Positions 25,121-51,525 of a DNA stretch of 64,000 bases are shown here, one piece after another. The number at the start of each line of letters is the position of its first letter. The stretch's first letter is position 1. The stretch comes from Brachypterus glaber (taxonomy: Eukaryota; Arthropoda; Insecta; Coleoptera; Kateretidae), in contig OY294046.1 in assembly GCA_958510825.1 (NCBI GenBank), positions 48,651,794 through 48,715,793 of the forward strand, given 5' to 3'. Position numbers and translations under genes: made by a program. Under the pieces are notes generated by a model. It was not told where the DNA came from. It did not search any database and saw nothing but the letters and a program-made list of their open reading frames with translations.

Positions 25121-25935
25121 ATGCTTTTTATTTGCGTCTTAATACTAGTTTTTAGTTTTAGTGAATCAAAACCAGCAGAAAATATTAAATTAATAACAAA
25201 GTAAGTTATTTTTAATCAAATTTTATATAAATAAGTTAAGAATTGACAGTCTATAAAAATATATATATACGGCACTTTTGTCGGTTAATAGCCGAAAATA
25301 TATATATTAGAAAGTAATCTATCTGTCGTTAAAATCAAATAAACAGGAAACAGTGAATAGTACCATTTCATCGTTTTTGGGAATCATCAGCACTGTGTAT
25401 CCTTTATGTTCTTAATATTTAAATAAAACTTTAGATAGATATAAAAGTATGGTAACATCTATTAATGTGGTCAAGTGAACAGATAACAGTGACCATATCA
25501 ATACATGGAACCATATTTTTATATCTATCTAACGTTTTATTTAAATATTAACAACATACAGGATACACAGTGCTGATGATGACGAAATGGTGATATTCAC
25601 TGTTTCCTGTTCATTTGATTTTAACGATAAATAGATAACTTTCTAATATATATATATTTTCGGCTATTAACCGACAAATGTGCAGTATATATATTTTTTT
25701 TTATAGACTGTCAATTCTTAAGTTATTTAACTTTGCTTAACCTGCTAAAGGATCATAAAATGGTATAGATCCGTGGCATTTTTAATGCAAGTTACTGTAC
25801 ACTCTAAATTGTGGCGGTTTGCCTTTTGGGAACAAGTGAACATAACAGTGACCACATCAATAGATGACACCATACTTTTATTTCTATCTAACGTTTTATT
25901 TAAATATTAACAACAACTTTCTAATATATATATAT

Positions 25936-25978
<43 letters not shown>

Positions 25979-27302
25979 TATATATTTTTTTTTTTTTCGG
26001 TTATTAACCGACAATCGTGCAGTATATATATTTTTTTATAGACTGTCAATTTTTAACTTATTTAACTTTGCTTAACCTGCTAAAGGATCATAAAATGGTT
26101 TAGATCCGTGGCATTTTTAATGCAAGTTACTGTACACCCTAAATTGTGGCGATTTGCCTTTTGGGAACAAGTGAACAAAACAGTGACCACATCAATAGAT
26201 GGCACTATACTTTTATATCTATCTAACGTTTTATTTAAATATTAACAACATACAGGATACACAGTACTGATGATTCCCAGAAAAAATGAAATAGTACTAT
26301 TCACTGTTTCCTGTTCATTTAATTTTAACGACAGATAGATAACTTTCTAATAAGTTTTATATAAGCCGACAGGGAGCTTTTATTAAAAGCTATGTTGGAT
26401 TTCAAGAATGCCGAGGTTAAAAAAAAAGATAAAAAAATAATTTTAATTTACGTAGAATTTAGTTTTAATTTTCTTATGCTCCATAGACAGATTAGCACAG
26501 AAGACATTTTTCTTTGTGATATCCATGTATTTGTTGCGGTGTATAATCTGTGCTGCTGGCACTACTATTTTTGTTTTTTTTTTCTAGCGCTTCTGACAAT
26601 AATAATAAAGAAACTCAAGAAGTAAGGAAGGCAAAAGCAATAAATGGTACAGCAGTAACTAACATATTGCCGGACAATCAAAAGTTTTTAAAAAAATTAC
26701 CATTATTCAATAACAATGATAATATAACAAAAATCAATAGTAATAATTCTGATAGACATACTAATATTATAGAAAATTTATCAAACTTTAATTTAAAGAT
26801 AAATAATAAAAGCATTGTTGATCCTGATATACATACATATAGATTTGAAAGAGGAAAATACAACACTAGTAAAAAAGTTTATACCTCAAAAGAAAGTACG
26901 CAAAAGAGTATATTAGACAAAATCTATATTTCAGCGCCGGAGTTATCTCCTATAAAACCAAATATATCACAAGAAATGAATATCACATGGAAAGTAACTA
27001 CTTTCTCGCCGCTTATTATTAACGTATCAAAAACCTTGAATGATGTAGAATCGAGCACTATTTTGGATGATAATATTACAGAGTTACCAGAAACAACAAT
27101 AACTACCAAAATAGACGAAGATGATAAAACAGAGAGAAACATAACAACCGTGAACTATGATAAAACAGATAACGATATTACAACTAAATATTTTGACAAC
27201 CAAGAGAATAATATTACAACGGAAGACTATGATTACGATAGTGTTCAACCGAGAATTTCCAGCGCCGCTATCGCTTCTCTAGCCGGTGGAGGAATTGGTT
27301 AA
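25121..27302 (+). CDS. SLAGGG family secreted protein 1
   Basis: I do not recognise this gene. Exon 1 (25121-25200) encodes a signal peptide, MLFICVLILVFSFSESKPA, and ends AACAAA before a GTAAGT donor. Exon 2 (26588-27302) follows TTTTTTCTAG and joins in phase 2, giving 264 residues. The mature part has no Cys, is rich in Asn, Thr, Asp and Lys, has many N-x-T/S sequons, and near residues 210-250 repeats the pattern NITT followed by acidic and Tyr residues. It ends SSAAIASLAGGGIG, the C-terminal motif shared with five other genes here. Terminal Gly after Ile would suit C-terminal amidation (inference). The intron is 1.39 kb of repeats. A decayed copy of this gene's end lies 1.1 kb downstream. 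Extracellular location is well supported; function is unknown. Confidence 0.75.
25229..26350. repeat. Inverted and direct repeats in the intron of gene 1
   Basis: 25229-25729 is a foldback: AGTTAAGAATTGACAGTC and the GCCGAAAATATATATATTAG block are inverted at the right. From about 25700 a unit with CCTGCTAAAGGATCATAAAA and TTGCCTTTTGGGAACAAGTG is directly repeated about 305 bp later. Between the direct copies lies an (AT)n run (25921-25985). Confidence 0.75.
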
Positions 27303-27637
27303 GAAAGGCTATTGCACCCTAAATCAAAGATTGCTATTATGTAATAATTTTGTGATAATTAAGGATTAATTTTACATTAAAAGACTCAAAATGATGATCT
27401 TTATTAAGGTATTTGTATTTGCAATCTTCTTTGATTTAACAAGAGTATTTGATACAGTTGACTCTTATATTTTTAAAGATTAACGTTGATTGTTTTGGTA
27501 AACGACATGGTAATATCAACTGCATAACATTATTTTTATCAAAAAGTTAAAAATAAAAGGCATTTTTTAAAAAACTTTTTACAAGCGTTTTTATCATTTA
27601 TCTGCTCATAACTGAGTTATATTATTTTGTAAAATTT

Positions 27638-28361
27638 TACAGAGCGGTCCAAAAGTCACCCCCCCTCTTAACTTTTGAACCAGTTGAGATATCGACTTCA
27701 AACTTGGAACTTTTAAATAAGACAACTTAAACTATCTTTTAGCATATATTTAATACTTTTAGCTCTTAAAATGTGGGCAGGGGACATGGGGGCACATTTT
27801 TTTTAAATGGAAAGGGGGGTCGTGTAATACATCATTTTAAAGCTTATAAAATTCTCCATTTAACTCCATATTTTTAAATTTAAAAAGTCCAAATTTTTTG
27901 GGTTTAAAATGGGGTTGAAAATGGGTATTAATATCAAAATTCCTCTAAAAAAACAAATAATTTTTTAAAAATGTCTAATTTCATCATAAAAAAATGTTAA
28001 TTATACTTTTAAACTAATTTTAGTTGACATAAATAAAAATTTATAAAAAAATCGAATGTTTTAGCACAAAAAATTGAAAAATCAAAACCTTAAAAAACAT
28101 TTTTAAATAATTTTAAAATGTTAGTTTAAATAGAGAATTTTAAAAGCTTTAAAATGATGTATCACACGACCCCCCTTTCCATTAAAAAAAATGTCCCCCA
28201 TGCCTCCCTGCCCATATTTTAAGAGCTGAAAATATCAAATATATGCTAAAAGATAGTTTAAGTTGTCTTATTTAAGTTCTAAATTTGAAGTCGGTATCTC
28301 AACTCGTTCAAAAGTTAAAAGGGGGGGGGTGACTTTTGGACCGCACTGTATTATATTAAAA
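27638..28361. mobile_element. Foldback MITE with ACAGNGCGGTCC ends
   Basis: The ends are ACAGAGCGGTCCAAAAGTCA (left) and its near complement, ending TGGACCGCACTGT (right). Matching inner blocks include AAGACAACTTAAACTATC and TCTTAAAATGTGGGCAGG. It is 0.72 kb, non-coding, and separates gene 1 from its decayed duplicate. Confidence 0.8.
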
Positions 28362-28415
28362 TATGTATGTAAAATAAATAGGTATTAAAAAAATCATATT
28401 GTTTTTTTTAAATAT

Positions 28416-28521
28416 AGAATTTACAGCAGTGCAATCTCTACACATTCTGTAGAAGAAATTCGTTAAGAAACATTATTATTTGTTTAAATCAAAGATTACC
28501 ATTATGTAACCATTTTGGGAT
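28416..28521 (+). pseudogene. Relic of a SLAGGG last exon and 3' flank
   Basis: AGAATTTACAGCAGTGCAAT at 28416 onward lines up without gaps with gene 1 from 27252 over about 106 bp, covering the last 14 codons and the 3' flank. Shared blocks include GTTAAGAAA at the stop and TAAATCAAAGATT and ATTATGTAA after it. The relic reads SSAISTHSVEEIR then stop where gene 1 reads SAAIASLAGGGIG then stop. The motif glycines are lost, and upstream there is only transposon. This is a dead duplicate of the gene 1 3' end. Confidence 0.65.
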
Positions 28522-29694
28522 ATACAGGGTGTTCCGTGAGAAAAGGAAAATATTTTTAAGATGTGTTCTAGAGGTCAAAATAAGAAAAATAGTTCCCATA
28601 AACATATATCCAAAAACGGCTCGTAAGGGAGATACGCCCCTTCAAATGGGGCACCATAATTTCGATTTATTATTAATAACCTAGGAACCCTTTGTGTTAT
28701 ACCATCGAGGTTTAGCATGTGATATATGTTTTATAAGGCCTATCAGCCCATGGCATTTGCATGTAGTTACTTCAACCAGGGGCGTCCGTAATGGGGGGTC
28801 TTATCCCTTTTTTGCCCCAAACTTTTTTCTGCTTAACTTTTTGTTGGTTTATTTTTAGAATAGTATTACACAGGTATAAAAAAATTAAAAAGGTACTTCT
28901 TGTAATACCATAGTATTAACCGTTTTCGAGAAAAATACAATTAAAAATAAAATTACATTTTTCCAGAACCAAAAATAAAAAACAATAAAATGTTAGATAA
29001 TAACCAGAATTTCCATAATGCAAGGTGATTTAACATCAAAAGCTAAGAAAAAAAGTTTTATACATTTAGGCCCAAATATCTTTTTTAAAGGTTACATGGC
29101 CCTTTAAAAATGTTGGAATTTTTTGGACCGTACCACCCTTAGCATTGATTTTTGGAATTACGTATATGACGACTTTTTTTTCTTTGTTTTTGGTGTACAG
29201 TAACCCTACACTATTAAAATTTTGGGTTTTAACATTTTAGCTTTTAATTTTTGGTTCTCGAAACTTGTAATTTTGCCTTTAATTGTATTTTTCTCGAAAA
29301 CGGTTAATCCTAAAGTATTACAGCAAGGGTACCTTTTTGATTTGTTTTTACCCAAGGAATACTATTCTAATAATAAATCCACAAAAAAAAACAGAAAAAA
29401 GTTTGGGGCAAAAAAGTGATAAGACCCCTCATCTCGCACGCCCCTGGTTTAAGTAACTACATTCAAATACCATTGGCTGATAGGCCTTATTAAGAATAGA
29501 TCACTTGCAAAACCTTGTTGCTATAACACAAATGGTTATTAATTAAAAATTGAATTTTTGGTACCCCTTTTGAAGGGGCGTAGCTCCCTTATGAGTCCTT
29601 TTTGGACATATGTTTATGGGAACTTTTTTTCTTATTTTGACCTCTAGAAAACATCCTTTAAATATTTCCCTTTCCTCATGGAACACCCTGTATT
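28522..29694. mobile_element. Foldback element with ACAGGGTGTTCC ends
   Basis: ATACAGGGTGTTCCGTGAG at the left is mirrored by CATGGAACACCCTGTAT at the right. Inner matches include the CGTAAGGGAG/CCCCTTCAAA block and CGTTTTCGAGAAAAATACAA. Arms are about 0.55 kb. It resembles the 2450-3980 foldback in layout and several inner blocks, so both belong to one superfamily. Non-coding. Confidence 0.8.
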
Positions 29695-29865
29695 ATAAAC
29701 ATTTATGTTCAAGTTTACATAATATATGACTGTACCTTTTTTGTATCTAAACAATAAATAAATAAGTACATGTTTTATTATTTAATATGATATATGAAGC
29801 CTTTGGAATAAAAATAAACAAACTTAATTATTTATCTAGTTTTATTATTATTATTATTATTATTT

Positions 29866-30760
29866 TTTTTTTTTTAACGCAAAGCATCTGCTAGTCAGGC
29901 CTCGCTCGTATCTCCGACTTTACGAGCAGGTGAGCCAGCAAAATCAATGACTACTCCACACACCGTGAGGTAAGTAATTATTGGGTCCGATTGTCATGCG
30001 CTCTGAGTATATTCCGTGATCCCAGAATAACGGCCTTCTGCATATTTCCGGATAAGAGCTCTGCTCTTTTGGAGCATGCCGGTATGGTCTTAAGTGCAGA
30101 GAGAAATGTTTGCCTTGTACCACCAAGAGAACCAATAATGAGGACCACAAGCTTAACAGAATAACCCGGAGTTCGAAAAGCAGGTCTTGATATTTCGTCC
30201 GTTTTTCCTCCTCTTTTAAGACTATGTTCGTTTCGGCAGGAGCCGAGAATTCAATAACGAACATTGTCTTAAGATCTTTATCGAGGAGGACTACATCAGG
30301 CTTATTGAATCTTATTTGCCTGAGGGTGGAGAATGAGTAGTTCCAATAAATTCGGCACCTCTCATTCTCCACAACGGACTCAATATCGTCTGGAGCATAG
30401 GGCCTTAGGTGAAAGTATTGCACACGCAAGGCCGCGTTATGTCGTCGTATATAGGCGGAGACGGCATTTGTAAATATGTTGTAGCCTGCGTTTAGACATG
30501 TTATCGGCCTGTAGTTTTTGGGTTCAGACAAATCTCCGTTCTTAGGGAGTAACACAGTTCGCCCCTCGACGAACCAGGAAGGTATTTGCTGCTCCTCATT
30601 TAGCCATGAATTGAATATTTTGGCTAAATGTTGGTGGGTTGATGGTAACTTTTTCCACCAGTAGTTGTTAATGCCATCTGGGCCTGGAGCAGCAAAGTTC
30701 TTAGATCCCTCAAGAGCTTTTCGAACTTCTTCCTTGGTTATCGGCAGGCGCTCATCCCCT
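29866..30760 (-). pseudogene. Dong/R4-like LINE remnant, internally deleted
   Basis: From about 30756 leftward the frame reads DERLPITKEEVRKALEG, then FAAPGPDGINNYWWKKLP, EGRTVLLPKNGD and PKNYRPITCLN, which is the start of a LINE reverse transcriptase. It then jumps to YFHLRPYAPDDIESV, RIYWNYSF, NKPDVVLLDKD and VIEFSAPAETNIVLKEE, a PD-(D/E)xK restriction-like endonuclease domain. After a frameshift near 30165 it continues IIGSLGGTRQTF and ends NILRAHDNRTQ at 29978. The polymerase core with its Asp-Asp pair is missing, so the copy is dead. The 3' end runs into poly-A and (AAT)n on the - strand at 29842-29875. A C-terminal endonuclease of this type and TAA-repeat targeting are known for Dong elements of the R4 clade. 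Confidence 0.75.
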
Positions 30761-30765
30761 TATCC

Positions 30766-30860
<95 letters not shown>
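30766..30860. repeat. (TTA)n microsatellite between two LINE remnants
   Basis: About 31 perfect ATT units. It is both the 5' border of the LINE remnant on its left and the 3' tail of the one on its right. Long Tyr, Ile or Asn runs in translations here are artefacts. Confidence 0.95.
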
Positions 30861-31429
30861 TCCATTTAGTATTTTAATTCTCAGCTAATAGCTGGAATAC
30901 ACCTATTCCTTATAGTTCTCAAGGGAATTAGGTTATTAGGAGTGGGAAGGGATTTCACCCTATCCCACCCGTTTATTTAGGTAATTGTATTGTTTAAGAA
31001 CTTTCTAACAATGTGGCATGTTTGTAAGATTGCTATTCTTTGCAAGTTACAAACAATATGTTCTTCAATATCCAATTTTCCTAGATGTTTAACTAAATTT
31101 TTTGACACAACTCCAATAGCAGATATAATAACTGGTACTATTGTGGTTTCCCGAACTTTCCATATATGCTGTAATTCAAGCGCCAGATTAATATATTTGT
31201 TAATTTATTCTGTTTCTGTTTTAATTAGGTTTTGTGACAGTGGGTATCCTACGTCAATAATAAATGCTTTTCCATTGGATTCCTCAATCACCACAATGTC
31301 TGGCCGATTATGATCAACTGTATGGTCAGTTATGATAGGTATGTCCCAATATATGAGGGTTTCGTTAGACTCGAGTACTGTAGCAGGTTGATACTTATAA
31401 TATGGCGCTGGATTCTCAATAAGTCTATA

Positions 31430-31435
<6 letters not shown>
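30861..31435 (-). pseudogene. Second endonuclease-type LINE remnant, nonsense-broken
   Basis: From about 31430 the frame reads YRLIENPAPYYKYQPATVLE, then LIYWDIPIITDHTVDHNRPD, IVVIEESNGKAFIIDVGYP and LSQNLIKTETE, then a TAA stop at about 31203. It continues in frame INKYINLALELQHIWKV, TTIVPVIISAIGVVSKNL and HIVRKFLNNTIT to a stop near 30979. The RPD...IIDV pattern is a restriction-like LINE endonuclease with its C-terminal tail. It differs clearly from the left-hand remnant, so two families are present. The upstream reverse transcriptase is absent. The 3' tail is the (TTA)n array at 30766-30860. Confidence 0.7.

Positions 31436-31522
<87 letters not shown>
31434..31522. repeat. (TTA)n microsatellite at the 5' border of the second LINE
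   Basis: About 29 ATT units. The LINE coding remnant begins directly at its left edge, so the insertion lies inside a TAA-type array. Confidence 0.95.
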
Positions 31523-31523
<1 letters not shown>

Positions 31524-31654
31524 CATGACAAGATTATTTGACACAGATTAATTTTTATAACGATTAAACATAATTCTTTTGGTTTACGAGATAGATTTAA
31601 CGATTGTTTTACCATTTAAAAAAAAAAGATAATATGAAGTAAAAATAAAGTATA

Positions 31655-32898
31655 TATTTTGGGTCACGGATTTGGATGATTATGTTTTTTGTGTAGCCCA
31701 CCGATGTTAGAAAAAAACCTAAACAGGATTTTTTCAAAAACCCCCCGTTTCGAAAATATGATTTTTTAAATTTTTTTCAACAATTTTAAAATTCTCGAAA
31801 ATGTAACATTGGCGTGCAATAACTTAAAAACTATTTAACCTAGAGAACTGTGGTTTTCAACATTAAAAAAATCATATTTTTTTCTATCAAATTTTATCAA
31901 ACTAATTTTGACATTTTTTTGTTTTTTCAAGATGGCCGCTAAAAATTTTAAGGCCATTTTTCTCAAAAACTCCATTTTTTATTTTCTTGAAATTTTTAGG
32001 ATCAACTACTAATTATGTGTACTTTGTATCTAAAAAATTAAAAAATAGGACTTTTTTGTTATTTTTTTGCGAGAACCAATAATATGGCCAAAAAATAGAA
32101 TTTTATCAACTTTTTCGAACTTTATTCGCAACAGGTGTGGAAAAATTCTCGTTTTATGGTTAAAACTACTGTCTGCATGTCCTGTTTAATGTCCGTTTCA
32201 ATAAATTTGTAATGTATACAATAATATTGTATAACAATATATTATATTGTTATGATATCCGCGCCGATCCAGGCCTGACGACATGGGTCACGGATTTGTC
32301 TGATTTTTTTGTGTGTAGCCCACCGATGTCTAAGAAAAATCTCCACGGGATTTTATTCAAAAACGTCCCGTTTTGAAAATATGACTTTTTTAATTTTTCT
32401 TAAAATTTTTTGAATTTGTCAAAAATTTGACATGCAATAACTCAAAAACTATTTTCAATATTATTGTATACCTTACAAATCTATTATTATGAAACCGGCA
32501 TAAAATAGGACATGCAGACAGTAGTTTTAACGAGAAAAAGATCATTGATTGAATGAATAAAAAATGGAGTTTTTGAGAAAAATAGCCTTAAAATTTTTGA
32601 AAAAACAAAAAAAACTGTCAAAACTAATTTGATTAAATTTGATAGGAAAAAATATGATTTTTTTTTAATGGAGAAAACCGCAGTTCTCTAGGTTAAATAA
32701 TTTTTGAATTATTGCACGTCAATGACTCATTTTCGAGAATTTTAAAAATTAAAAATTAAAAAAATCATATTTTCGAAACGGTTTTTTTTTAACCCGTGGA
32801 GGTTTTTCTCTAACATCGGTTGGCTACACATAAAAAAATAATCAGCCAAATCCGTGACCCAAGCCCTCAGCCCTGTCTGAATCGGCTCGGATATCATC
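31655..32898. mobile_element. Complex foldback with three copies of one terminus
   Basis: GGGTCACGGATTTG with GTAGCCCACCGATGT occurs at about 31659 and 32284 in the same direction and once inverted near 32800-32865. The outer arms pair over blocks such as GACATGCAGACAGTAGTTTT. Short ends with GATATCC and CCGATCCAGGC (32246) pair with a block ending at 32898. This looks like one foldback with a partial duplication of its end. Non-coding. Confidence 0.65.
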
Positions 32899-33080
32899 TT
32901 AAACCAAAGACTAAGTATAATTTTTAATCTTTGCTTAAACATTGGATGCTATATCATGGCAAACTACAAGGTTCCGTGTTAGGTCCCTTGCTATTCCTGT
33001 TATTTAACAACGATTTTCCATATTTCATTAAGACAGTATATACTATTCCCTTATACCCAGAAAACTAAAATAGCTCGAAA

Positions 33081-34699: not shown

Positions 34700-35087
34700 T
34701 TGAGACGATATAGGCAGTGTTACGGACTTAAAATGGTTCATTTATATTTCGTTCTTAATTAAACCAATATAGACCATATATTTTCGACATAAAGTTGGTC
34801 ATTGTTAGGTCTTCCCAAATTTTATCAAATAAAGGCGTATATTATCGAACCAAAATAGTTTATTAATTTACCGTCTAAAACTAGGGAGCATTTAGTAATA
34901 AAAATGGAACTTATAATAATAAGACCTTAAACTGACATAAAATAGCATACATATTTCGATTTAATTATGAGTGCTTTTAGACGTACAATTATAGCGTCCA
35001 TTTTTCATTCAACTTTTGAGAAATATTTTGAAAGTCTCAATAATTTCTTCCATTTTTCTTGCTAACAAGTTTAGGATGTTATTATAT

Positions 35088-36275: not shown

Positions 36276-37846
36276 ATGCATGTGATTTTAGTATTGTTTT
36301 TTATGTTTGTATGTACACTTTCAAAACCTGTTGATATTAAAACCAATGTTTATCACACCAAAAGGTAAGTAATTTTAAATAACACTTTTTTTGCACGACC
36401 AAGACTAAAACCTAATTTTACGCTTTCATTTTCGGGACTAAACTTGCCGTTTTTCTCCCAAGGGAATAAAAATCACGGCAATCTTGATAATACTCGATAA
36501 TATTAAAATATTACACTTACTATGTACTTTGCTGGTTCAAAAATTAGGTTTGGTGATGTTTTGTAATAAATTAGTGATTCAAACTAATTTATTTGATTTT
36601 AACAAAGAAAACCTTTAAAAATAACATTGTTAACAATTTATACATAACTTAAAATTTATCATCTTCGTCCATTTTTTTGACGTTTGTGTCAACCATATAA
36701 AAAAACAATTGAAATCGCGATAGCCGTGAAACTGACTTTTCGAAATTTACAGGCATATTCATTAAATTACGAAAATAAAACAACCGATTTTAGCCGCATG
36801 GTTTTTAATTTTAATTTTTTCTACCTACCTAAATTATGTTTGGTCCTCGCTGCGCTCGCTCAGGAAACACTCATGCAGCGGGACTAAAACAGCCAGTTTA
36901 GTCCCTTGATATATAAATAACTATTTTATTGCTTTAATTTGAGAAATTAGTTTTATATAATTTAATAAACAATTGATAAAGGTCACTTGATTTTTCCAAA
37001 AAATTTCTTGAACTGCAAAGACATGACATTGCAAAAACATTTGCTATTTGCCATTGGATAAAAAATGAACATGACAAACATTATAAATTAATTATTTATA
37101 ACATAAACAATATTTATTAAAATGGCCAGTATATAGGTACAAATTTTGATAAGGTACTAGCGCTTAGGGAACGTTCAAGAATTACGTAACGCAAATTGTA
37201 CCAAAATTTATACACCTCATAACCTGGTTCCCGCGTTATAAAAGGCTGTAGAGATTTTATATTTTGGCTACCCCCCTAATACAAGCCCTATTTGGGGGGG
37301 TAGCCAAAACATGAAATCCCTACAGCCTTTATTTTTGATATAATTTGCGTTACGTAATACTTGAACGTTCCCTTAGTCATTGATATACAAATAATAATTT
37401 TTTTAATTTTTAGCGTTTTAAAATCTTTGGAGACAACAAAAAATAGTTCATTATCTAAAAGTAAAGATTATCTCATTAAAATCAACCTAAATCCTTCCAA
37501 TGAAGAAAAAAATCAAAATTATACTAAACCAATAAAAGAAGAAGAAGAAAGAACAGTTTATTTTAACCTAAGGGATGCAAAACCTTTAAAAAAAGAAGAT
37601 AAAATTCGAACTGATGTAAATAAACAAAATATAACAGATTTAAATAATTCAAAAATTGATGATGGAACAAGACCAAATAATTGTTCGCCAACGGACTTAA
37701 CAACCGAGAAGCCATCCGCAACAACGATAAACTACGAAGACATAAATAGGATATTCTCGTTTGAAGGCCCTGAAACTCCTGAAAGTATTGACGATAGAAT
37801 ACCGACGGCTTTGATAATATCTCTAGCAGGGGGAGGCCCTGGTTAG
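36276..37846 (+). CDS. SLAGGG family secreted protein 2
   Basis: This gene is not recognised. Exon 1 (36276-36364) encodes a signal peptide, MHVILVLFFMFVCTLSKP, then VDIKTNVYHTK, and ends at a GTAAGT donor. Exon 2 (37414-37846) follows TTTTTAATTTTTAG and joins in phase 2, as in gene 1, giving 173 residues. The mature protein is Lys/Glu/Asn/Thr-rich with one Cys and contains YFNLRDAKPLKKEDK, which resembles FKVRDALKP in gene 4. It ends ALIISLAGGGPG, the most divergent member of the C-terminal motif: Ile-Ile replaces Ile-Ala and Pro precedes the last Gly. The intron is 1.05 kb and holds a TAGTCC repeat block and a MITE that ends 41 bp before the acceptor. Secretion is well supported; the role is unknown. 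Confidence 0.72.
36391..36907. repeat. TAGTCC-type element in the intron of gene 2
   Basis: GACTAAAACC and GGGACTAAACTTGCC on the left and GGGACTAAAACAGCCAGTTT (36882) with AGTCCC on the right bound this block. The right end matches 54-77 at the window start. The interior is non-coding. Confidence 0.45.
37167..37372. mobile_element. MITE just before exon 2 of gene 2
   Basis: The ends are inverted: GGGAACGTTCAAG, then ATTACGTAACGCAAATT, with matching inner blocks TTTTGGCTACCCCCC and CTGTAG. TTA flanks both sides. It is about 206 bp. Related sequence lies at 13455-13580. Confidence 0.8.
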
Positions 37847-40239: not shown

Positions 40240-41045
40240 CCTTTATTTTGATGACTAGATATAGAAATACACTGCCCAGTAAAAGAGCTTTTCCATTTTT
40301 CACCTCCGCACGTAAAATGGATTTTTTATTATCATATTCACTTTCAGTAACCTTAAAAACCCCAATATACCAACTTTCACGAAAACTACCTCCCGCCCAT
40401 CAGGGGGTGGAGTTACAAAAAAATTATTTTAAGCTTTAGTTTTAGCATCCTCAAAAACCCCAATATATCAACTTTCAAGAAAGCTATCGCCCGCCCCTCA
40501 GGGGATGAGCTTGATTTTTTTTATTATCAGATTCACTTTCATCAACCTCAAAAACCCTAATATACCAATTTTCACGAAAACAAACCTCCCGCCCCTCAGG
40601 GGGTGGAGTTAGATTTGTTTTTTTATCAGATTCACTTTCAGTAAGCTTACAAACCCCAATATACCAATTATCACGAAAACTACCACCCGCCCTCAGGGGT
40701 TGAAATTATAAAATCCCTATATACCAATTTTGACGAAAATATTAAAAATATAAAAAATATTTACCCCACATCCCCGCGAGGGTAAAGTTAGATAAATTTT
40801 ATTATCAGATTCAATTTCAAAAATCCCTATGTAGCAATTTTTAAATTTGTAAAAAAAATGTATTTTACCCCCCTTGACGCACCCCAGTGTTTACCAAACA
40901 CAATCCCGAGCGAGAACTTTTGGTAACATACCTGTATGTCAAATTTTAAGTCTCTAGCTTAAAGCGTTCTTAAGTGATCGTGTTGACAAAATTTCCCGGA
41001 CAGACCGATCGACTGACCAATCGACTGACCGATCGAGCAACAATT
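40240..41045. repeat. Tandem array of a GGGGGTGGAGTTA unit of about 90 bp
   Basis: About six imperfect units carry TTTATTATCAGATTCACTTT, then CCCCAATATACCAATTTTCA, then CCCGCCCCTCAGGGGGTGGA. The array ends with CCCGAGCGAGAACTTTTGG, GTCTCTAGCTTAAAGCG and CCCGGACAGACCGA, as in the block at 10190-10505. Non-coding. Confidence 0.75.
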
Positions 41046-41852: not shown

Positions 41853-42067
41853 TGTAAAGTTATGCAAAATTACATAAAGTTAATAACATTATTTTAACAA
41901 AAAGTCATGTTTTGCAAAAACATGTTCTTTGGATATAATAGGATTTAAAGATAGGAAAGGTAAAATTAAAAATATATTCAAAATTTTTCGTTTATTTTAT
42001 AAACAAATCAGTGTGACCAAAAAGGTTTGTTAAAGAAAGAAAATTAAATAAAAAATTAATGTTACAT

Positions 42068-43019: not shown

Positions 43020-43035
43020 TGTTACATATGTATAA

Positions 43036-43407
43036 TTATTTTCCCAAACCGCCACCAGCCAGTGACGCAATAGCAGCTGATCCAATGAACGGAAATGATT
43101 CAATTTGTGGTTTTGTTGTAGCATCTGTAATATTGGGATTGGTTGTTACTGGACTTAAAAGAGGAGGAAAATTTAATGGACTTTCAGTCGTTGGAGGTAC
43201 GGGGTCCCATTTTACTGTTTTTTTGCTAAAAAGAATTGGGACAGAGGAAGAATTGGGATGGTTAAAGGTACCTTTTTTGACAAAATTTATGGAAGGTTGA
43301 TTTTTAAAAACTGGATGTATGATGGCGTGTTTTCTTTGGAAAAAGATCTGTAAATAAAATATTGCTAATGACCTTTTTAAGTAAAAATTATATTTATTAC
43401 ATAACAA
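43036..43407 (-). CDS. SLAGGG family secreted protein 3
   Basis: This gene is not recognised. One open exon of 123 codons starts at the ATG at 43407. Residues 1-28 look like a signal peptide: a basic start, a hydrophobic core and a polar end (KRSLAIFYLQIFFQRKHA). The mature part is Pro/Ser/Thr/Asn-rich without Cys and contains KKTVKWDPVPPTTESP, which resembles the KW..IP pattern in gene 5. It ends SAAIASLAGGGLGK. No intron is needed. The codon CAG before IFF sits where genes 5 and 6 have their splice acceptor CAG, so an upstream exon cannot be fully excluded. A foldback element lies 16 bp downstream. Gly-Lys before the stop would suit carboxypeptidase trimming and amidation (inference). Confidence 0.7.
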   Translation of the reverse strand: MLCNKYNFYLKRSLAIFYLQIFFQRKHAIIHPVFKNQPSINFVKKGTFNHPNSSSVPILFSKKTVKWDPVPPTTESPLNFPPLLSPVTTNPNITDATTKPQIESFPFIGSAAIASLAGGGLGK

Positions 43408-43427
43408 TTGATATTACTAATTAAGTA

Positions 43428-43753
43428 CAGCGTGTTTCAGTGCCGATTACTCAAAAACTAAAAGTGATATTTAAGATCTATAAATAGCATGGTGTAGATA
43501 TAATGTTTGACTATATTTTCTCATAAACTAAATTCTGAAATATTCTACGGTCCCATGGTATTCGCAAAAATACTTTTTAAGATTCTAGCCGTCGAAAAAA
43601 TATTTTAAAGCGTCGAGACGCCTATGCCATGGGGCAGCGCGAGGTATAGTTTATGACAAAATATAGTCAAACATTTTATAATTACTATGCTTTATTTAAA
43701 TAGGTCTTTTATTTTTTAAATAATTGACCTTGGGAGTTTTAATTGAAACCCTG
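43428..43753. mobile_element. Non-autonomous element between genes 3 and 4
   Basis: CAGCGTGTTTCA at the left mirrors TGAAACCCTG at the right, both TA-flanked. Inner pairs around TGTTTGACTATATTTTGTCA are inverted. Non-coding, about 326 bp. Confidence 0.6.
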
Positions 43754-43818
43754 TATGTAAATGTGCACTAGATTTTTAATATAAACTAAGTATTTTACAA
43801 AACCTAACTGAAATTTAT

Positions 43819-44349
43819 TTATTTTCCCAAGCCGCCTCCAGCTAATGAAGCTATTGCAGCTGATGAAATATCAGATGGGGGGAGAGGTGTTGTAGTACGA
43901 GGCATAAAAGGGGGTAATGGTGGCAATGTCAAAATAGCTTTTTGAGTAGAAGAAATATCACTTAAATGAGTTTTTGAAGGTGCAGGTTGAGAAAAAGGAG
44001 GAGTTTGAGTCAAAATAAAAGGAGTATTAATTTTAGAGTTTGCAAGGTCTATTTTAGGTGATGGTTTAGTAGGAGAGGTACGATTAAAAGAAGAGAGAAT
44101 TGAAGTTGCATCTTTTGGAAAATTTAAGTTTAACTCTAAGTTAGGTATTCCCTTTTTTGACATATTAGGAAAAAGTGTTCTCTTGGCTGGAAATGCTGGT
44201 ATAGAAGGCTTTAAGGCATCCCTAACTTTAAAAGATGTAATCAACGGTTTTAATTCTTTAGTTGGAGGAGGATTGGCGTTGTTTCTATGGATAAATATCT
44301 GAAAATAAATTATTAACATGGTAATTATAATAATATTTTTTTTGGGCAT
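43819..44349 (-). CDS. SLAGGG family secreted protein 4
   Basis: This gene is not recognised. I start at the ATG at 44349 (176 residues) because it gives a classical signal peptide, MPKKNIIIITMLIIYFQIF followed by IHRNNA. An in-frame ATG at 44418 would add 23 hydrophobic residues. The mature part begins NPPPTKELKPL, is Pro/Ser/Thr/Lys-rich, has no Cys, contains FKVRDALKPSIPAFP (compare gene 2) and a Pro-rich stretch before the end, and closes SSAAIASLAGGGLGK. Signal region and CAG-ATH junction match gene 3, 0.4 kb downstream on the same strand, so the two look like a tandem pair. An AATAAA overlaps the stop region. Secretion is likely; function unknown. Confidence 0.7.
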   Translation of the reverse strand: MPKKNIIIITMLIIYFQIFIHRNNANPPPTKELKPLITSFKVRDALKPSIPAFPAKRTLFPNMSKKGIPNLELNLNFPKDATSILSSFNRTSPTKPSPKIDLANSKINTPFILTQTPPFSQPAPSKTHLSDISSTQKAILTLPPLPPFMPRTTTPLPPSDISSAAIASLAGGGLGK

Positions 44350-44418
44350 ATAATGTAAAAATAGTAAAACCAAATCAATTGACAAATCTATAATAACAAA
44401 AATACACAGAAAAAACAT

Positions 44419-45795
44419 AAGAAAATAAATTAAATTAAACGTTAAATTTAATGCAAATAAATTATGTTTGGTTTAACTAATAATTAACGCTAAACTAATG
44501 GATAATTTGCTCAGACATTAGCACTAAACTAACTAGGAATTTGACACATGAAATGTCATAAATATTTGACACATTTTATTTCATTGGTTAAATTCTTAGG
44601 GTTAATTTATACAATTATTAAAATTATCACTATAGTACAGGTAAATTAAAGCAAAAACTGTAAAATAAAAGAAAAAATTTGTCCACTCATGAAACTTTGG
44701 TTATAACTTCATATAAGCAGTAGAATTAAAGATCTGATGAGTCCCTAAAATTTTAAGCGGTGGAACATTGTTTTTGGGAGGGGGGAGGGGGTTGAAAGTT
44801 TCAAAAATTAAAATTGAGTGAAATAAGGCGAGTGAGGTATCATTTTAGATGTTTTTTTGCATGCTGAATCGAATGAAACAAGCTTTAGATCAATCAAATT
44901 ACTTCTAAACAAGTTATGACAGGTTTTGTAGAAAAAATACAGAAATTGTGTAATTAATGGTTCAACAGTATGTATTCGGGTAATAATATTTGTTAAAGTT
45001 ATATGGAGCTCTCTACAACTAGAATTATGAAACAAAAGACATCTACCCTATCTCTATCTCATTTGTGCTACACTTTCCAGCCAACCAAATAAATACTGTA
45101 TTTGTTTTTCATACAACAAATACAGTATTTATTTGGTTGGCCGGAAAGTGTAGCAGTGAGCCGCACGAACGAACATAGCTAAAGTGAATCTGTAGAATAA
45201 GATAATTCTACTAAAATTTAGATGGAGCCAGTAATTTCTTTTTTAAAAATAGTATAGTTACACTTTTCATCCGGCCAAGTAAATATTGTATTTGTTCAAC
45301 AAAGAACAAACTCAGAATTTGTTTGGTTGGGTGGAAGTGGGAGTGTATGTATGTCTTCTATCCTTTTTGGGTAGAACTTTTGTCCCTGTCTAATCTAACG
45401 GGAGAAATCTCCATTAAAGTTGGTTTTAATACGTTGATAGTCCCGTGAATCATATGTGATTCATGATACGTTTACTCCAAACGTCCATGAAGCATATGTG
45501 ATTCATTTCCGTTAGTTTTATTTTTCAACAATGTAGCATATAGTCTAGTAGTTTTATATAAATTTCCAATTTTCCTTTCCTGTTTTCCACAGGAGGGGGG
45601 GGAATATCGTATATATGTATTTTTTTTTAATGACCCATTTATTATACAGTAAATATGCATTTAAACTTGAAAATATGTATATTGATATATATTGAAAACA
45701 TGTTTATTGACGCAATAAAAGATAATTTATAAAATTTTTCCAAAATTATTGCCTATTTTTCCAGTTTTCATATTTTTTATTCAATTTTACATGAT
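44419..45795. other. Gene-free stretch with hairpin and element copy
   Basis: No gene is supported. At 44637-44780 lies a single-arm copy of the foldback at 45796-46755 (shared AAACTTCATATAAGCAGTAG-type block). The hairpin at 45067-45155 has its own entry, and a weaker relative lies at 45250-45340. Confidence 0.5.
45067..45155. repeat. Long hairpin, about 40-bp stem
   Basis: GCTACACTTTCC then GCCAACCAAATAAATACTGT and ATTTGTT pairs with its reverse complement ending GGAAAGTGTAGC, with one mismatch and an 8-base loop. A related, more diverged stem follows at 45250-45340. Confidence 0.85.
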
Positions 45796-46755
45796 TTTTA
45801 CAGGTAAAATAAAGCAAAAACTTAAAATAAAAGAAAAAATTTTTCCACTCATGAAACCTTAGTAATAACTTCATATAAGCAGTAGAATTACAGATCCGAA
45901 GAGTCCCCAACATTTTAAGGGGTGGAACATTGTTTTTTTGGGGGGGGGGGGGGGCAAAGCACAGTGGTCCCAAAATAAAAAAAAAAGTTTAAAAAGTCTG
46001 ATTTTTTGCATAGTGCCATTTTTGGCACCGCTGACTACGAAAAAAATAGTGAAAAAAATGAAAAAAAAAATTGCGACATTAGGGTGGCTCAAAAAATTTA
46101 AAAATGTCTGATTTAGCTGAAATTTGGCATAGAAGCTTCTTTTGGTAATAATAATACCGAAAATTACTCAAAAACTTAAAATTCAAAATGGCGGAATAAA
46201 TATGGCCGATTTATTTTTTAATTTTGCCAAAATTAACGAAAATATGCCACAAAACAAAAAAAGAATTGAAAGGAAAATAAGGCATAACAGAATGGGTTGA
46301 ATCTCTTAATTTTTGTTTGATTTTTGCAATATTTTCGTTAATTTTGGCAAAATTAAAAAATAAATCGGCCATATTTATTCCGCCATATTGAATTTTAAGT
46401 TTTTGAGTAATGTTCCGTATTATTATTACCAAAAGAAGCTTATATGCCAAATTTCAGCTAAATCAGACATTTTTAAATTTTTTGAGCCACCCTAATGTCG
46501 CAATTTTTTTTTTCATTTTTTTCACTATTTTTTTCGTAGTCAGCGGGGCCAAAAATGGCACTATGCAAAAAATCAGACTTTTTAAACTTTTTTTTATTTT
46601 GGGACCACTGTGCTTTGCCACCCCAAAAAACAATTATCCACCCCTTAAAATGTTGGGGACTCTTCGGATCTTTAATTCCACTGCTTATATGAAGTTATTA
46701 CTAAGGTTTCATGAGTGGACAAATTTTTTCTTTTATTTTTCCTATTTTACCTGTA
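45796..46755. mobile_element. Foldback element, nested palindromes
   Basis: TTTACAGGTAAAATAAAGC at the left is mirrored by ATTTTACCTGTA at the right. Arms share CACTCATGAAACC, AACTTCATATAAGCAGT and CCCCAACATTTTAAGGGGTGG. The inner part (about 46077-46498) is bounded by CATTAGGGTGGCTC and GAGCCACCCTAATG and is itself palindromic. Open frames on both strands here mirror each other and are not genes. Confidence 0.8.
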
Positions 46756-47059
46756 CTACTAAGATTATCACTAAAATTATCAACAGTAATATCACAAGAG
46801 GTAATGAAATTTTCGATAATTTTATTATGGTCCCAGAAAATAGTCTTGCTCAGTAATTTTTTGAGTATATTTTTCGTTATGAAAAATAAACGAAAAAAAA
46901 AAATACTTTAGAGCAAAATTAATTTACGAGGCCATAATAAAATTTTCTGAAAATTTCACTGCCTCAAGTGGTATTTGACTTGACTATTTTACGAACCATC
47001 TAGCAAGAAAAGGCATTTTTAAACAAATGTTTATTACATATTTAGTTTTGCGCTTCCAG

Positions 47060-47287
47060 CCAATCTTTTTAAATTTATAAAAAGCGCGGGCTAAATACAA
47101 TTGCTATAAACTCTGAAGCAAAGGAAAGAGCTTCTGTCAAAAGTTGATTTGTGGTTTTTAAGATAAATTACTGTTAAAATTTAATATTTAATGTGAAAAG
47201 TGATAAAATAAGCTTATTAATTGTTTGCATTAGCTAAGAAAAATGGAAAAGTATGGATTTACACTTGTCAAATTCCTAGAGAAAGGT
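47060..47287 (+). promoter_or_regulatory. Candidate promoter and short first exon
   Basis: CCAGCCAATC (47056) precedes TTTATAAAAAGCGCGGGC (about 47076), spaced like a CCAAT and TATA pair. About 170 bp further an ATG at 47243 opens MEKYGFTLVKFLEK and meets GGTATTT, a possible donor. I cannot find the next exon. It may be a solitary promoter of a lost element or the start of a gene with distant exons. Confidence 0.3.
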
Positions 47288-49599
47288 ATTTTTTCCTAAA
47301 TTAACTTGGCCTTTATATTTTTAAAAGTTGATCAAGAATTCCGTGATTTTTCACTTGTGAAATTATCAGTGTAATTTGGATTTGATTGGTTAAAAGTCAA
47401 AAAATAAAGGGTCTATTACAAGTTTGTAAAATAGTCACTAAAATTTATTACTAATTTAACTTAAAAAGCGTCATCTATTGCCTTAAAATTTAACATTTAA
47501 TTTTCTTAAAAATATTCGTAAAATGTGAATTCGAACGAAATAAAAAATACTTTATGAGAAAGTACAGCAAGAAGTAACAGTTCTGTTCAAATACAACTAT
47601 GAACAGATAGTTCTAAACTGTTATAGCCACAGACGGCAAAAGTATTATGATACCATTTATACTCCGTCCTTTTATGCAAGAAAGTAAGGGACGCGGCCCA
47701 TTTCACACCACAGAGTGCATAAATAGCATAATTATGCATAAATCGTAGTGTATCAAAAATTTAACAGATGTCGGTATTGTTAAAAAAGTACAATGCGATG
47801 CCAGAATTTGCTTGATGTGTCTTCATGTATCTTGTTATGGTTATTATGCGAGCCTCTGGATAGGCCTTAAGTTGTGATTGTAACCTAAAAATTTGACGTT
47901 TTCCTTTACGTTTGTACAATATGTAGAATATGCTAATTTACTGTGTGTATGAAGAATAAACCAAAAAAGTACCTTTTTCAATATAACATTAAGTATGTAT
48001 AATTATTTTATTATGTAACTTTCTCTTCTTTTATTAGCTTTAACGACCGTTAGTCATTGTCATAGACAAAAAATGTCACAATATTTTATACGTTAAAAGG
48101 TACGAGATTTTAACCAATAATGTAGCTTAAAAATAGCGAGAATTTTAAACTACTATCTTGCATAATTTGACGGACTATAGTCACGTAATTTTAAATTAAG
48201 TGTTAATTTATTGATTTAATATAAGAAAATTAGTAGGTGGCACTATTCCTCCTTCTGAATGAAAAACTAACCTTAATTTTAGTTAGTTTAGTGTTGATGA
48301 TTGGATAAACTAACTTTTAGTTAGTTTAGTGTTAATTATTGGGTAAATCAAACTTTAAATGTTAAATTTAGTTGTGATTTGTTTTAAATTTATAATATAT
48401 TTAAACTTTAAAATATATTATTAATTTGCAATTAGGTATACCTACACAAAATAAAGTTTTTAATTACTTGTTTAATTTTAAAATAAAATATTTTAAATTT
48501 GATTAAGTATTAATTTCCTTATTTAAAATTATGTATAACTTAACCTTTAATTTGAATAAGCTTCCTAGGAATATTATTTTAAATTAAAACGATAGATTAA
48601 CTTTGAATACACCTAAGTATTTATAATTTAATTAAAACTTATAATGATTATAAATTTAAAAAAATATAGAAAATATCATATTTTTTAACCTATATGAAGT
48701 TATGACAGTTGGTCATAACTATGATATTTAAAAATTTAATATTAAGTTAAAGTTAAACACGATTTAAAGTAATTAACACTATAAAAATTGACCAATTAGA
48801 CAAAAAAATAAGTTTCATGGTATGAATAACTATAGTTTAAGTCGTGGTTTAAGGACACTTACATAAATTAACAATTTTTTTTTTACTTGAAAGGAGTTGT
48901 GCTTAAATAATAACATTCTAAGACAGTCGTAGAAAAAACCTTTTTTTGTGTTGCTATTAACTATAATTTTCTTACGTATTTTTGGGGTCTGAAAACAAAT
49001 TTAATTTTAATAATGAAAAAGTTCACTGACCCACAAAGGTCCTTGTTTCCTTTTTATGGTAAAGGGTTTCATCAGATTTTGTTGAATTTTGGATAGGTAT
49101 GTTATAGTTCTCGATATTCTGATAAAAAATGTCTACAGACACAACTTTATACAAAAGATGGTATAATACAAACTTAATACTTTATATGCTCAGGACATTG
49201 TGCTGACTTTCTGTTCAAAAGTGTCTTCGGAGACAACTCACAAAATACAATAGTCCGGTGGAAATTTCAAAAAAAAAAAGATTTCTATTATAAACAAAAT
49301 GTTTTGATGGTTTTTAGATAATTCGAGTTCGCTGATTCCAAATCCGGCGGGTGCCACCTCGTATCTGTTGAGGAATTTGAGATAATTGAGGTCAAAACCA
49401 ACTATGGCCGAAATAATTTATAACCAAATAAACAAAATTATATGTTAAATTAAACTGTCATAGGTATAACATACCTATTTTTTAGGTATAACAAAAAATC
49501 TATCTATCTACATTATTTTTACCAACCCAAACTGACATCAATCCCACGGTAATACCCTTACATAAAATTAAAATAATGTATAACGATTTTTGCTGAAGA
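47288..49599. other. Gene-free AT-rich stretch
   Basis: Near 47790-47870 lies a piece of the GCATCGCATT/GGATAGGCC repeat. 48240-48860 is rich in TTAGTTTAGTG and AATTAA words. At 48970-49010 a TTACGTATTTTTGGGG block resembles an arm of the 55849-57311 element. No coding region is seen. Confidence 0.5.
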
Positions 49600-49705
49600 G
49601 TCATACGCGGTAAAGACCGTTCGCGGTAATGGTCTTCGCGGTAAAGGACATGCGCGGTAATGGCTTGTCGCGGTAATGGACAGCGCGGTAATGGTCTTCG
49701 CGATT
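49600..49705. repeat. Minisatellite of CGCGGTAATGGTCTT units
   Basis: About six imperfect 14-16 bp units, each starting CGCGGTAA, lie head to tail. GC content is much higher than around it. Confidence 0.85.
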
Positions 49706-49756
49706 GTTTTTTCGCTATAAAAAAAAATCCGGCGCCCTCCAAAAATATAGAAAAAT

Positions 49757-49757
49757 A

Positions 49758-49852
<95 letters not shown>
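49757..49852. repeat. (TTA)n microsatellite
   Basis: About 32 ATT units. Unlike the arrays at 30.8 and 31.5 kb, no LINE sequence is seen at its borders. Confidence 0.95.
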
Positions 49853-49853
<1 letters not shown>

Positions 49854-50199
49854 GTATTAACATAAATTAGAGTTAAGGTAAAACTTATATAAACACTATA
49901 TAAAAAAATGAGAAAAAAGTACAGAATGTGATGTAAAAAATATTATTATTATTAACATAAATAAAATATAGTCTGGTTAAGGGCAATTAACATTTTATTT
50001 TTTTGTGGGTCTGTGTTATTTGCTGCATTAATAAAAAAGTGTCTAACTTTTAATATGTTTTAATTTTCAATAAGTAATTTTAATAGATATAATGTTTAAT
50101 AATAAATATGCTTGTTTTAGTGTATGTGGCGGTTAGAATGAAATAGAACTTGTTTGAATTACCCGTATCTTTTAGCTTGTTATAAACATTTCTATTTAA

Positions 50200-50691
50200 T
50201 TAGCCAAGCCCTCCTCCAGATAAAGATGCAATAGCTGAACCACTAATACTATGTGTATTTACTTCATTCTCCAATTCTGGAAATCTATTGGTCACAGAAG
50301 GGGCAGTTGTGGTTGTAGGCATAGAAATATTAGTAAAAGGTTTGTTTAAGCTCTGGACAGGAACTGCTGGTATTACAGACCATTTACTTTGAAACTTCTT
50401 TTGTAAAAAAGGTTTAATAGTAGAGTTTGTCCTTGTTAACGCCTTAGGAGTAGTAATAGATGGACTGATGATTACCCACTTTATTGGTTTGCTAAAAATT
50501 GTGTATGGTTTTGAAGTGGTGGTTGTTATTTTGGTGATTGTTTGAAAGTGGTTGATAGGTGTTGTCCATTTGCTTTGGAACTTTTTATGAACATAAGGAA
50601 TGATGGTTGATTTTTTAGGAGTGGATTTTAGAAAAGATGGTATAATATTCCATTTAAATGTTGAAATGTTTCTTTCAAAGTTTTTATTTAT
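50200..50691 (-). CDS. SLAGGG family protein 5, last exon
   Basis: This gene is not recognised. A 163-codon open exon follows the acceptor AATTTTTTCAG and reads INKNFERNISTFKWNII at its start. An in-frame TAA just before the acceptor means it must be spliced (phase 0) to an upstream exon. The region contains an internal duplication: KWNIIPSF then STIIPYVHKKFQSKW, followed about 58 residues later by KWVIISPS then STIKPFLQKKFQSKW. The end is TTTTAPSVTNRFPELENE, then SGSAIASLSGGGLG and stop, with Ser replacing Ala in the motif. TTTTAPSVTNRFPE closely matches TTTPAPAITSRFPE in gene 6. No signal-peptide ATG is visible between this exon and the gene 6 exon, so exon 1 is farther away or shared. Confidence 0.65.
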   Translation of the reverse strand: MNKNFERNISTFKWNIIPSFLKSTPKKSTIIPYVHKKFQSKWTTPINHFQTITKITTTTSKPYTIFSKPIKWVIISPSITTPKALTRTNSTIKPFLQKKFQSKWSVIPAVPVQSLNKPFTNISMPTTTTAPSVTNRFPELENEVNTHSISGSAIASLSGGGLG

Positions 50692-50701
50692 CTGAAAAAA
50701 T

Positions 50702-51231
50702 TAAAATAATAACAGGTCTTACCTAAATTTATTCTAGTAATAAATAAACCAAAATATATTAAATTTTTATAAATACGTGATAAACATTAATATGTGCTTT
50801 GGTATAAAATGTATTAGTTAAATAATTTAAAATTAAAATGTACAAAACGATTAAACTAATCTTTGAAATCACAAAGTGACTTTGTGCTTTTAAAAATGGA
50901 AAACTCACAAATTTATTGAATTAGTATATTAAACAGATCTTCACAAAACATATATCAGGATTTTTTGCGAATTAAATTTGTGAATTTTGAGTCATCCAAT
51001 AATGGGTTTTAAATGTTTGCTAATTTTAAAAATGAACTATTTTTTCATTCAGCTATTTCCTAAAACCAATATTTATTATTCTGGATAAAATCCTATTTAA
51101 ACTAGAGAAATTAATTTTGGAATAAGCAAATTGTCACTTGTGTAAGCAAAGTGATTTCTAGAAGGTTGCTACTCTAAATAATAATAAATGAAATGATTTT
51201 TCTCATAAATGATGAAAATTTTATTTATTTT
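50702..51231. other. Spacer between SLAGGG exons 5 and 6
   Basis: All - strand ATGs here give fewer than 15 codons and none meets a good phase-0 donor. Nothing else is recognised. Confidence 0.5.
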
Positions 51232-51525
51232 TTATTTTCCAAGTCCTCCCCCAGCAAGAGATGCATAAACAGCTCCCCCTATAGCAGGAAATAGAGAATT
51301 TTCATTTTCTTGAGTGGGTTCTTCGGGAAATCTGCTAGTTATAGCAGGAGCGGGGGTGGTTGTCGAGTTAAAATCAGTGGCCAATGTTGAAACTAAACTG
51401 GTTGAATTTAAAGTGGGCATAGTTGGTTTAATTTCAAGGGGCTCTATGGACTGGGTTGGTTTTAATGAAGTTGTTGAAGCTGATGAAGATGACAATGTTG
51501 TGGGTGGAAGGATGGTGGATGAAGT
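51232..51525 (-). CDS. SLAGGG family protein 6, last exon
   Basis: This gene is not recognised. A 97-codon open exon follows the acceptor GTAATTTCAG (phase 0) and starts TSSTILPPTTLSSSSASTT. It is Ser/Thr/Pro-rich, has no Cys, contains TTTPAPAITSRFPEEP as in gene 5, and ends GGAVYASLAGGGLGK, with AATAAA signals directly after the stop. An in-frame TAA precedes the acceptor. Just upstream, an ATG at 51556 opens MLLVFFFVIS but is out of frame by one base, so the gene is either spliced to a distant exon or carries a frameshift in a formerly intronless signal region. Exons 5 and 6 could also be alternative last exons of one transcript. Confidence 0.6.
   Translation of the reverse strand, partial: TSSTILPPTTLSSSSASTTSLKPTQSIEPLEIKPTMPTLNSTSLVSTLATDFNSTTTPAPAITSRFPEEPTQENENSLFPAIGGAVYASLAGGGLGK

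What the first reader, a model, noticed from the sequence alone, without database searches (positions are those of the whole stretch)
25121..51525. A six-member family of secreted proteins defined only by a conserved C-terminus, SAAIASLAGGGxG(K)
Seen: six intact open exons on both strands end in SSAAIASLAGGGIG, ALIISLAGGGPG, SAAIASLAGGGLGK, SSAAIASLAGGGLGK, SGSAIASLSGGGLG and GGAVYASLAGGGLGK. The upstream regions are low-complexity and share little, yet the last 12-14 residues are held. Four members have a visible signal peptide. I know of no named family with this signature. Inference: the C-terminus is the functional part and the rest is a spacer or pro-region. The cluster expanded locally into pairs (1/2, 3/4, 5/6).
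Basis: partly seen in the sequence, partly recalled or inferred. Interest (0 to 1): 0.9.

Follow-up and report, generated by a model that had tools for sequence, protein, structure and literature searches.

The report
Beetle cuticle gene, interchangeable tail exons
The six "secreted proteins" are mostly, on present evidence, alternative last exons of one beetle cuticle-protein gene with a chitin-binding head, and they share a short, exactly placed C-terminal tag that other beetle cuticle proteins also carry and whose job is unknown.

Summary
The six C-termini are real, but they do not define an unnamed family. The motif is the C-terminus of Rebers-Riddiford (RR, Chitin_bind_4) cuticle proteins of beetles: 13 of 15 proteins listed by a profile search end in it (the profile held the motif and two of the 15; without those two, 11 of 13), from eight named beetle species. 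Brassicogethes aeneus has two proteins with an identical 111-residue head and unrelated tails, both ending in the motif; one tail best matches window exon 43819-44298. The other two exons (plus strand) belong to two-exon genes with their own signal exon and no detected RR domain. Pattern searches found eight such exons in this genome: six here, one 41 kb past the window, one on another contig, the latter two in RR genes. 21 of 21 motif-bearing ends stop at G, GK or GR, which suggests, untested, C-terminal amidation. No transcript was examined.

The parts
62335..62456 (-). Exon 1 of the RR cuticle gene: ATG, signal peptide, start of the RR domain; donor CA|GTAAGT, phase 2
   Evidence: aligns with B. 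aeneus P0001 residues 17-46
57654..58059 (-). Exon 2: rest of the Chitin_bind_4 (RR) domain and linker; donor CAG|GTAAAT, phase 0
   Evidence: Pfam PF00379 E 1.5e-11 for the frame, 3.6e-14 for a spliced isoform
51232..51525 (-). Alternative terminal exon T51 (97 aa), ends GGAVYASLAGGGLGK
   Evidence: phase-0 acceptor
50200..50691 (-). Alternative terminal exon T50 (163 aa), ends SGSAIASLSGGGLG
   Evidence: phase-0 acceptor
43819..44298 (-). Alternative terminal exon T44 (159 aa), ends SSAAIASLAGGGLGK; best match of the tail of B. aeneus P0001
   Evidence: phase-0 acceptor; 37% identity to P0001 residues 91-219 in tblastn, E 5e-15 with the tag included and low-complexity filters off; z 11.3, and 3.4 without the last 18 residues
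43036..43347 (-). Alternative terminal exon T43 (103 aa), ends GSAAIASLAGGGLGK
   Evidence: phase-0 acceptor
25121..25200 (+). Exon 1 (signal peptide) of plus-strand gene W27, donor phase 2
26588..27302 (+). Exon 2 of W27 (264 aa protein in all), ends SSAAIASLAGGGIG; no Pfam match above a curated cut-off
   Evidence: phase-2 acceptor
36276..36364 (+). Exon 1 (signal peptide) of plus-strand gene W37, donor phase 2
37414..37846 (+). Exon 2 of W37 (173 aa protein in all), ends PTALIISLAGGGPG; no Pfam match at E up to 1
   Evidence: phase-2 acceptor

Best explanation
This is part of a beetle cuticle-protein cluster. One minus-strand RR (CPR) gene has a signal peptide and a Chitin_bind_4 head on two exons and splices, in phase 0, to one of four alternative terminal exons spread over about 8.5 kb. 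Each gives a different tail, rich in proline, serine and threonine, and all end in the same tag, SAAIASLAGGGLG(K) with small variations. Two neighbouring plus-strand genes make secreted low-complexity proteins with the tag and no detected RR domain. Most likely working (inferred): the head binds chitin; the disordered tail sets spacing and partners and is swapped by tissue or stage; the constant tag is a free, exposed terminal element that docks the protein to a shared partner during cuticle assembly. Shown: the exons, phases, RR domain, tag, its presence on other beetle RR proteins, and two B. aeneus proteins with one head and two tails. Inferred: splicing in this species, chitin binding, the tag's role.
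For: RR head found and spliced in silico (PF00379 E 3.6e-14). The four minus-strand terminal exons have a phase-0 acceptor at their start, as the head's donor requires; the two plus-strand ones accept phase 2, as their own exon 1 donors require: 6 of 6. tblastn with three RR queries found no second RR exon in the window. B. aeneus P0001 and P0002 are identical for 111 residues, then unrelated (z 0.0 without the last 18 residues), and both end in the tag; P0001's tail matches T44 best. Aethina tumida P0003, with a similar head and a T44-like end, is named 'isoform X3' by its source. 13 of 15 proteins listed end in the tag. The two other tag exons found in this genome both follow RR exons.
Against: No transcripts of this species were available. 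The signal-exon scan lists, besides the RR gene's exon 1, three other ATG frames on the minus strand between 43 and 64 kb; two of them (61185 and 45852) have a phase-0 donor and could in principle serve tails. 45852 scores higher in hydropathy (2.97) than the RR exon (2.48); against it, its donor (CCT|GTAAAA) is weak and it lies in a stretch present three times in the window. 61185 is not repeated in the stretches held. Identical heads in B. aeneus could come from very recent tandem copies. T44 has an in-frame ATG with a hydrophobic run before its acceptor. At T51, T50, T44, T43 and W37 other AGs in other phases pass the same crude filter. Poly(A) signals are uninformative in this AT-rich DNA. 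The tag's role has no direct evidence; the fold model of P0007 leaves it at pLDDT 31-39.
Confidence: 0.75

Rival explanations
1. Six independent genes, each with its own signal peptide, sharing only the C-terminal tag.
For: Two of them (W27, W37) do have their own signal exon; T44 has an in-frame ATG and hydrophobic run before its acceptor; two other phase-0 ATG frames, 61185 and 45852, exist on the minus strand.
Against: 45852 lies in a repeated stretch and both candidates have weak donors; two candidates could not give four genes; similar tails in B. aeneus and A. tumida are attached to an RR head; acceptor phases match the RR donor, 4 of 4.
Confidence: 0.15
2. Tandem gene duplicates whose RR heads were lost or missed between the tail exons, not alternative splicing.
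For: The neighbourhood is an RR cluster with further RR exons at three places past the window, so duplication is common here.
Against: tblastn with three RR queries found no further RR exon in the window.
Confidence: 0.1
3. About the tag only: it is a C-terminal amidation signal. Terminal K or R is trimmed and the exposed glycine is turned into an amide, giving ...GGGL-NH2, a processed end on a structural cuticle protein.
For: 21 of 21 tag-bearing C-termini (8 in this genome, 13 database proteins) end exactly in G (15), GK (5) or GR (1). That G, G-K and G-R suit the peptidylglycine amidating pathway is recalled, not from a call.
Against: The 13 database ends come from a search whose profile held the tag. 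The GGG and AIASL parts are not needed for amidation, so the motif must do more; a plain small-residue end with an optional base fits too. Two paper searches for amidation with cuticle proteins (3 and 1 papers) and one for the enzyme with cuticle and epidermis (1 paper) showed nothing on the point in titles and abstract starts; those papers were not opened.
Confidence: 0.25
4. About the tag only: it is a variant of a common C-terminal segment of RR-1 proteins (IP-x-A-I-x-x-[AS]-L, recalled), kept by descent, with no special function.
For: The RR gene in L020 continues as PPPIPPAIQRALEWLAANPEPEQK after its RR region, which can be laid by eye on GIPSAAIASLAGGGLG.
Against: Too few residues to test. 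The tag is kept on tails that are otherwise unrelated and on two proteins without a detected RR domain, with differing codons, so selection seems to hold it.
Confidence: 0.2

Closest known systems
RR (CPR) 'cuticle protein CP14.6'-like proteins of beetles (PF00379)
   Same: Signal-like N-terminus, Chitin_bind_4 domain, and the same C-terminus, IP[SG]AA[IL]ASLAGGGLG (P0007, P0009, P0011-P0014). The name CP14.6 is the source's for P0009, P0011 and P0014.
   Different: Those listed have a short tail; the window gene has four alternative long tails. W27 and W37 have no detected RR domain.
Brassicogethes aeneus P0001/P0002 and Aethina tumida LOC109604649 isoform X3 (P0003)
   Same: Homologous head (for B. 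aeneus); P0001 and P0003 carry a T44-like end; P0002 a second tail on the same head
   Different: Only two tails seen in B. aeneus; exon maps there were not available
CPF/CPFL cuticle protein families
   Same: Precedent for cuticle proteins that share a C-terminal motif while the rest differs (passages of PMC12426002 and PMC13405353)
   Different: They are separate families; that their C-terminal motif differs from this tag and that they lack the RR domain is recalled, not compared here

Membership tests
CPR (RR) cuticle protein, for the minus-strand gene | Chitin_bind_4 (PF00379) domain above the gathering score | tested here: met
   53.2 bits against a cut-off of 25, for the T51 isoform spliced in silico
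CPR (RR) cuticle protein, for the minus-strand gene | Signal peptide, secreted | tested here: met
   Hydrophobic N-terminus MKFIFLIHVLWYIKVNC on exon 1; by hydropathy only, no dedicated predictor
CPR (RR) cuticle protein, for the minus-strand gene | Binds chitin, located in cuticle | not testable with these tools
   needs protein
CPR (RR) cuticle protein, for W27 and W37 | Chitin_bind_4 domain | tested here: not met
   no PF00379 match at E up to 1 for either spliced protein; no RR exon by tblastn between their exons
Alternative terminal exons of one gene | One 5' head spliced to each 3' exon | tested here: inconclusive
   sites and phases fit 4 of 4; two-tailed head in B. aeneus; two other phase-0 ATG frames; no RNA
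Alpha-amidated secreted peptide or protein | C-terminal Gly, or Gly followed by K/R | tested here: met
   21 of 21 tag-bearing C-termini; 13 of them come from a search whose profile contained the tag
Alpha-amidated secreted peptide or protein | Amide found on the mature protein | not testable with these tools
   needs mass spectrometry

The most novel reading that the evidence does not exclude
One chitin-binding head with a cassette of swappable tail exons, every tail capped by the same tag, and the tag matured to a C-terminal amide: a class of amidated structural cuticle proteins in which amidation protects or docks the free end during assembly, with W27 and W37 as head-less partners that compete for or bridge the same docking site.
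Probability: 0.2. Interest if true: 0.75.

Novelty: new variant of a known kind. Interest (0 to 1): 0.45.

Why it matters
Cuticle genes are usually counted as one gene, one protein (my understanding). Here one RR gene can probably make four proteins with very different tails, so gene counts would understate what the cuticle can vary. The tag is short, exactly terminal, and kept on otherwise unrelated tails, which makes it an easy handle: one antibody or one peptide assay would test a whole class of beetle cuticle proteins. Two text searches for pieces of the tag (10 papers and 1 paper) listed no paper on cuticle; they were judged by title and abstract start, and figures and supplementary files were not searched.

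Tried and rejected
Rejected: GPI-anchor signal (too short and glycine-rich; from knowledge, no predictor run). Chance (see observation check). Recent DNA copying of the tag: codons differ in 208 of 293 pairs; blastn between the ten exons gave four short matches, three of them at the tag, the best T43/T44, 46 bases at 85%, so recent kinship of that one pair is not excluded. Poly(A) signals as support for four 3' ends: base rate too high, 1.57 per 300 bases. Fold of P0007 with 13 sequences: mean pLDDT 59, tag helix at pLDDT 31-39, so no structural claim. One solved RR relative exists, 9l0p_A (E 1.3e-15), not followed. The first exon of the L017 and L025 genes was not found. A whole-genome count of PF00379 was wanted and never obtained. 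Rfam: no match in the window. Paper searches for alternative last exons or C-terminal motifs of cuticle proteins (9, 25 of 26, 10, and 15 of 233 listed) and passages of four papers showed no description of this tag or of such a tail cassette.

Own errors corrected: one search read only the first record of each locus file (redone); one search cut one exon of W27 a base short (redone).
Full report
What was claimed. Six exons between 25121 and 51525 end in SAAIASLAGGGxG(K), read as a secreted family defined only by its C-terminus.

Observation. All six ends are there, each directly followed by a stop. Three pattern searches of the whole 648 Mb genome returned 11, 18 and 9 matches. The tool's control, the pattern read backwards, gave 191, 15 and 40, so the raw counts are no evidence. 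Reading all 38 matches in frame, 15 fall on eight distinct exons with frames of 69 to 251 codons that end in SL[AS]GGG[LIP]G(K): the six of the window, one 41 kb past its end (C4:48757417, L009/L017) and one on another contig (C17:24381577, L011/L025). The other 23 have frames of 8 to 73 codons and none ends so. In the eight copies 208 of 293 pairs of identical residues use different codons: the protein is held, the DNA is not. Divergent tags would be missed by these patterns.

What it is. A protein search with the frame of exon 43819-44298 gave one protein with E up to 10 among 759 candidates, from the beetle Brassicogethes aeneus: a Chitin_bind_4 protein ending DISSAAIASLAGGGLG. A second search, with that protein, gave itself and a sister, P0002. 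The two are identical for 111 residues and then unrelated, and both end in the tag. That pointed to a missing head in the window. A spliced isoform has PF00379 at 53.2 bits, cut-off 25.

Gene models. The head ends in a phase-0 donor (CAG|GTAAAT). The four minus-strand tail exons have phase-0 acceptors at 51525, 50691, 44298 and 43347; the two plus-strand tail exons have phase-2 acceptors that fit the phase-2 donors of their own signal exons at 25121-25200 and 36276-36364. At T51, T50, T44, T43 and W37 other AGs pass the same simple filter in other phases, so the phase argument alone is moderate. The scan for signal-peptide exons on the minus strand from 43 to 64 kb lists the RR gene's exon 1 and three other ATG frames. 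Two of those, 61185 and 45852, have phase-0 donors and are possible rivals; the second scores higher in hydropathy than the RR exon but lies in a stretch present three times in the window. tblastn with three RR queries found no second RR exon in the window. The simplest model is one head with four alternative terminal exons.

Tails. With the last 18 residues cut off, 23 of 28 tail pairs score below z 2. The exceptions are T51 with T50 (3.9, a shared TxRFPE stretch), T44 with the tail of B. aeneus P0001 (3.4; 11.3 with the tag), and T50 with T43 (2.9), W27 (2.6) and T44 (2.1). T44's match suggests that this tail type is older than the split between the two beetles; the matched part is proline-rich, so this is not proof. 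A. tumida P0003 has a T44-like end and also an RFPE stretch, and its source calls it isoform X3.

How widely the tag occurs. A profile of five sequences with head and tag found 15 proteins at E up to 0.1 among 7995 scored candidates (only those sharing most words were scored). 13 of 15 end in the tag; two of these, P0001 and P0002, were in the profile, so 11 of 13 others. P0004 ends in a divergent AAIITLQGGLG and looks like a fused prediction; P0010 lacks the tag. 12 of the 13 carry species names, eight species, all beetles to my knowledge; P0015 has none. The profile contained the tag, so the count is biased, and it does not show absence outside beetles. In the window's own genome the RR genes in L020 and L026 end, as read by eye, without the tag.

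The setting. Further RR exons lie on the same contig past the window at L014, L017 and L020. The L017 gene, ending GEHIPPAAGTDKKTPKLGIPSAAIASLAGGGLG, resembles B. aeneus P0007 and A. tumida CP14.6 isoform X2 (P0009) by eye. P0001, P0002 and P0007 are listed with the same longest-contig length, as are P0003 and P0009, which is compatible with the same linkage there.

The tag. Of 21 tag-bearing C-termini (8 here, 13 from the database) 15 end in G, 5 in GK and 1 in GR, nothing beyond. This is the pattern expected of a C-terminal amidation site (recalled knowledge). It is a suggestion only: the rest of the tag needs another reason, and three paper searches listed nothing on it. The fold model of P0007 leaves the tag at low confidence.

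Verdict. It is a known family with two features for which I found no description: an alternative tail cassette and a constant terminal tag. Searches behind that statement: (listings), and passages only of PMC12426002, PMC2932725, PMC4335487 and PMC13405353.

Noticed in passing
window 15284-16999 +: 571-codon open frame with a CYICG stretch that reminds me of Transib-type (RAG1-like) transposases; recalled, Pfam gave only one weak match below its cut-off.
   Followed up: no
window 29944-30759 -: Reverse-transcriptase-like fragment (PGPDGINNYWWKKLP...) of a non-LTR element, by eye; no Pfam match at E up to 1.
   Followed up: no
window 30766-30860, 31435-31522, 49758-49852: Three perfect TTA/TAT arrays of about 30 copies each.
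   Followed up: no
window 40322-40703: Tandem repeat of a 98-base unit, 3.8 copies, containing a CTCAGGGGGTGGAG stretch.
   Followed up: no
window 45733-45912, 44636-44748, 46651-46739: A dispersed repeat, three copies in the window, that carries the hydrophobic ATG frame at 45852.
   Followed up: partly
L026 2808-2927 and 5803-5928 (C17): RR paralog next to the tag-bearing L025 gene; its last exon as read by eye has no tag, so the tag may be lost or gained between neighbours.
   Followed up: partly
protein P0004 (Abscondita terminalis): Three RR-like stretches in a row with tag-like pieces before each new one; looks like neighbouring genes fused by the annotation.
   Followed up: no
protein P0008 (Cylas formicarius): Named 'putative mediator of RNA polymerase II transcription subunit 26' by its source, but it has PF00379 and the tag: probably a mislabelled cuticle protein.
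   Followed up: no
T51 51232-51525, T50 50200-50691 and protein P0003: A second shared element, T-x-RFPE, in the tails upstream of the tag.
   Followed up: partly
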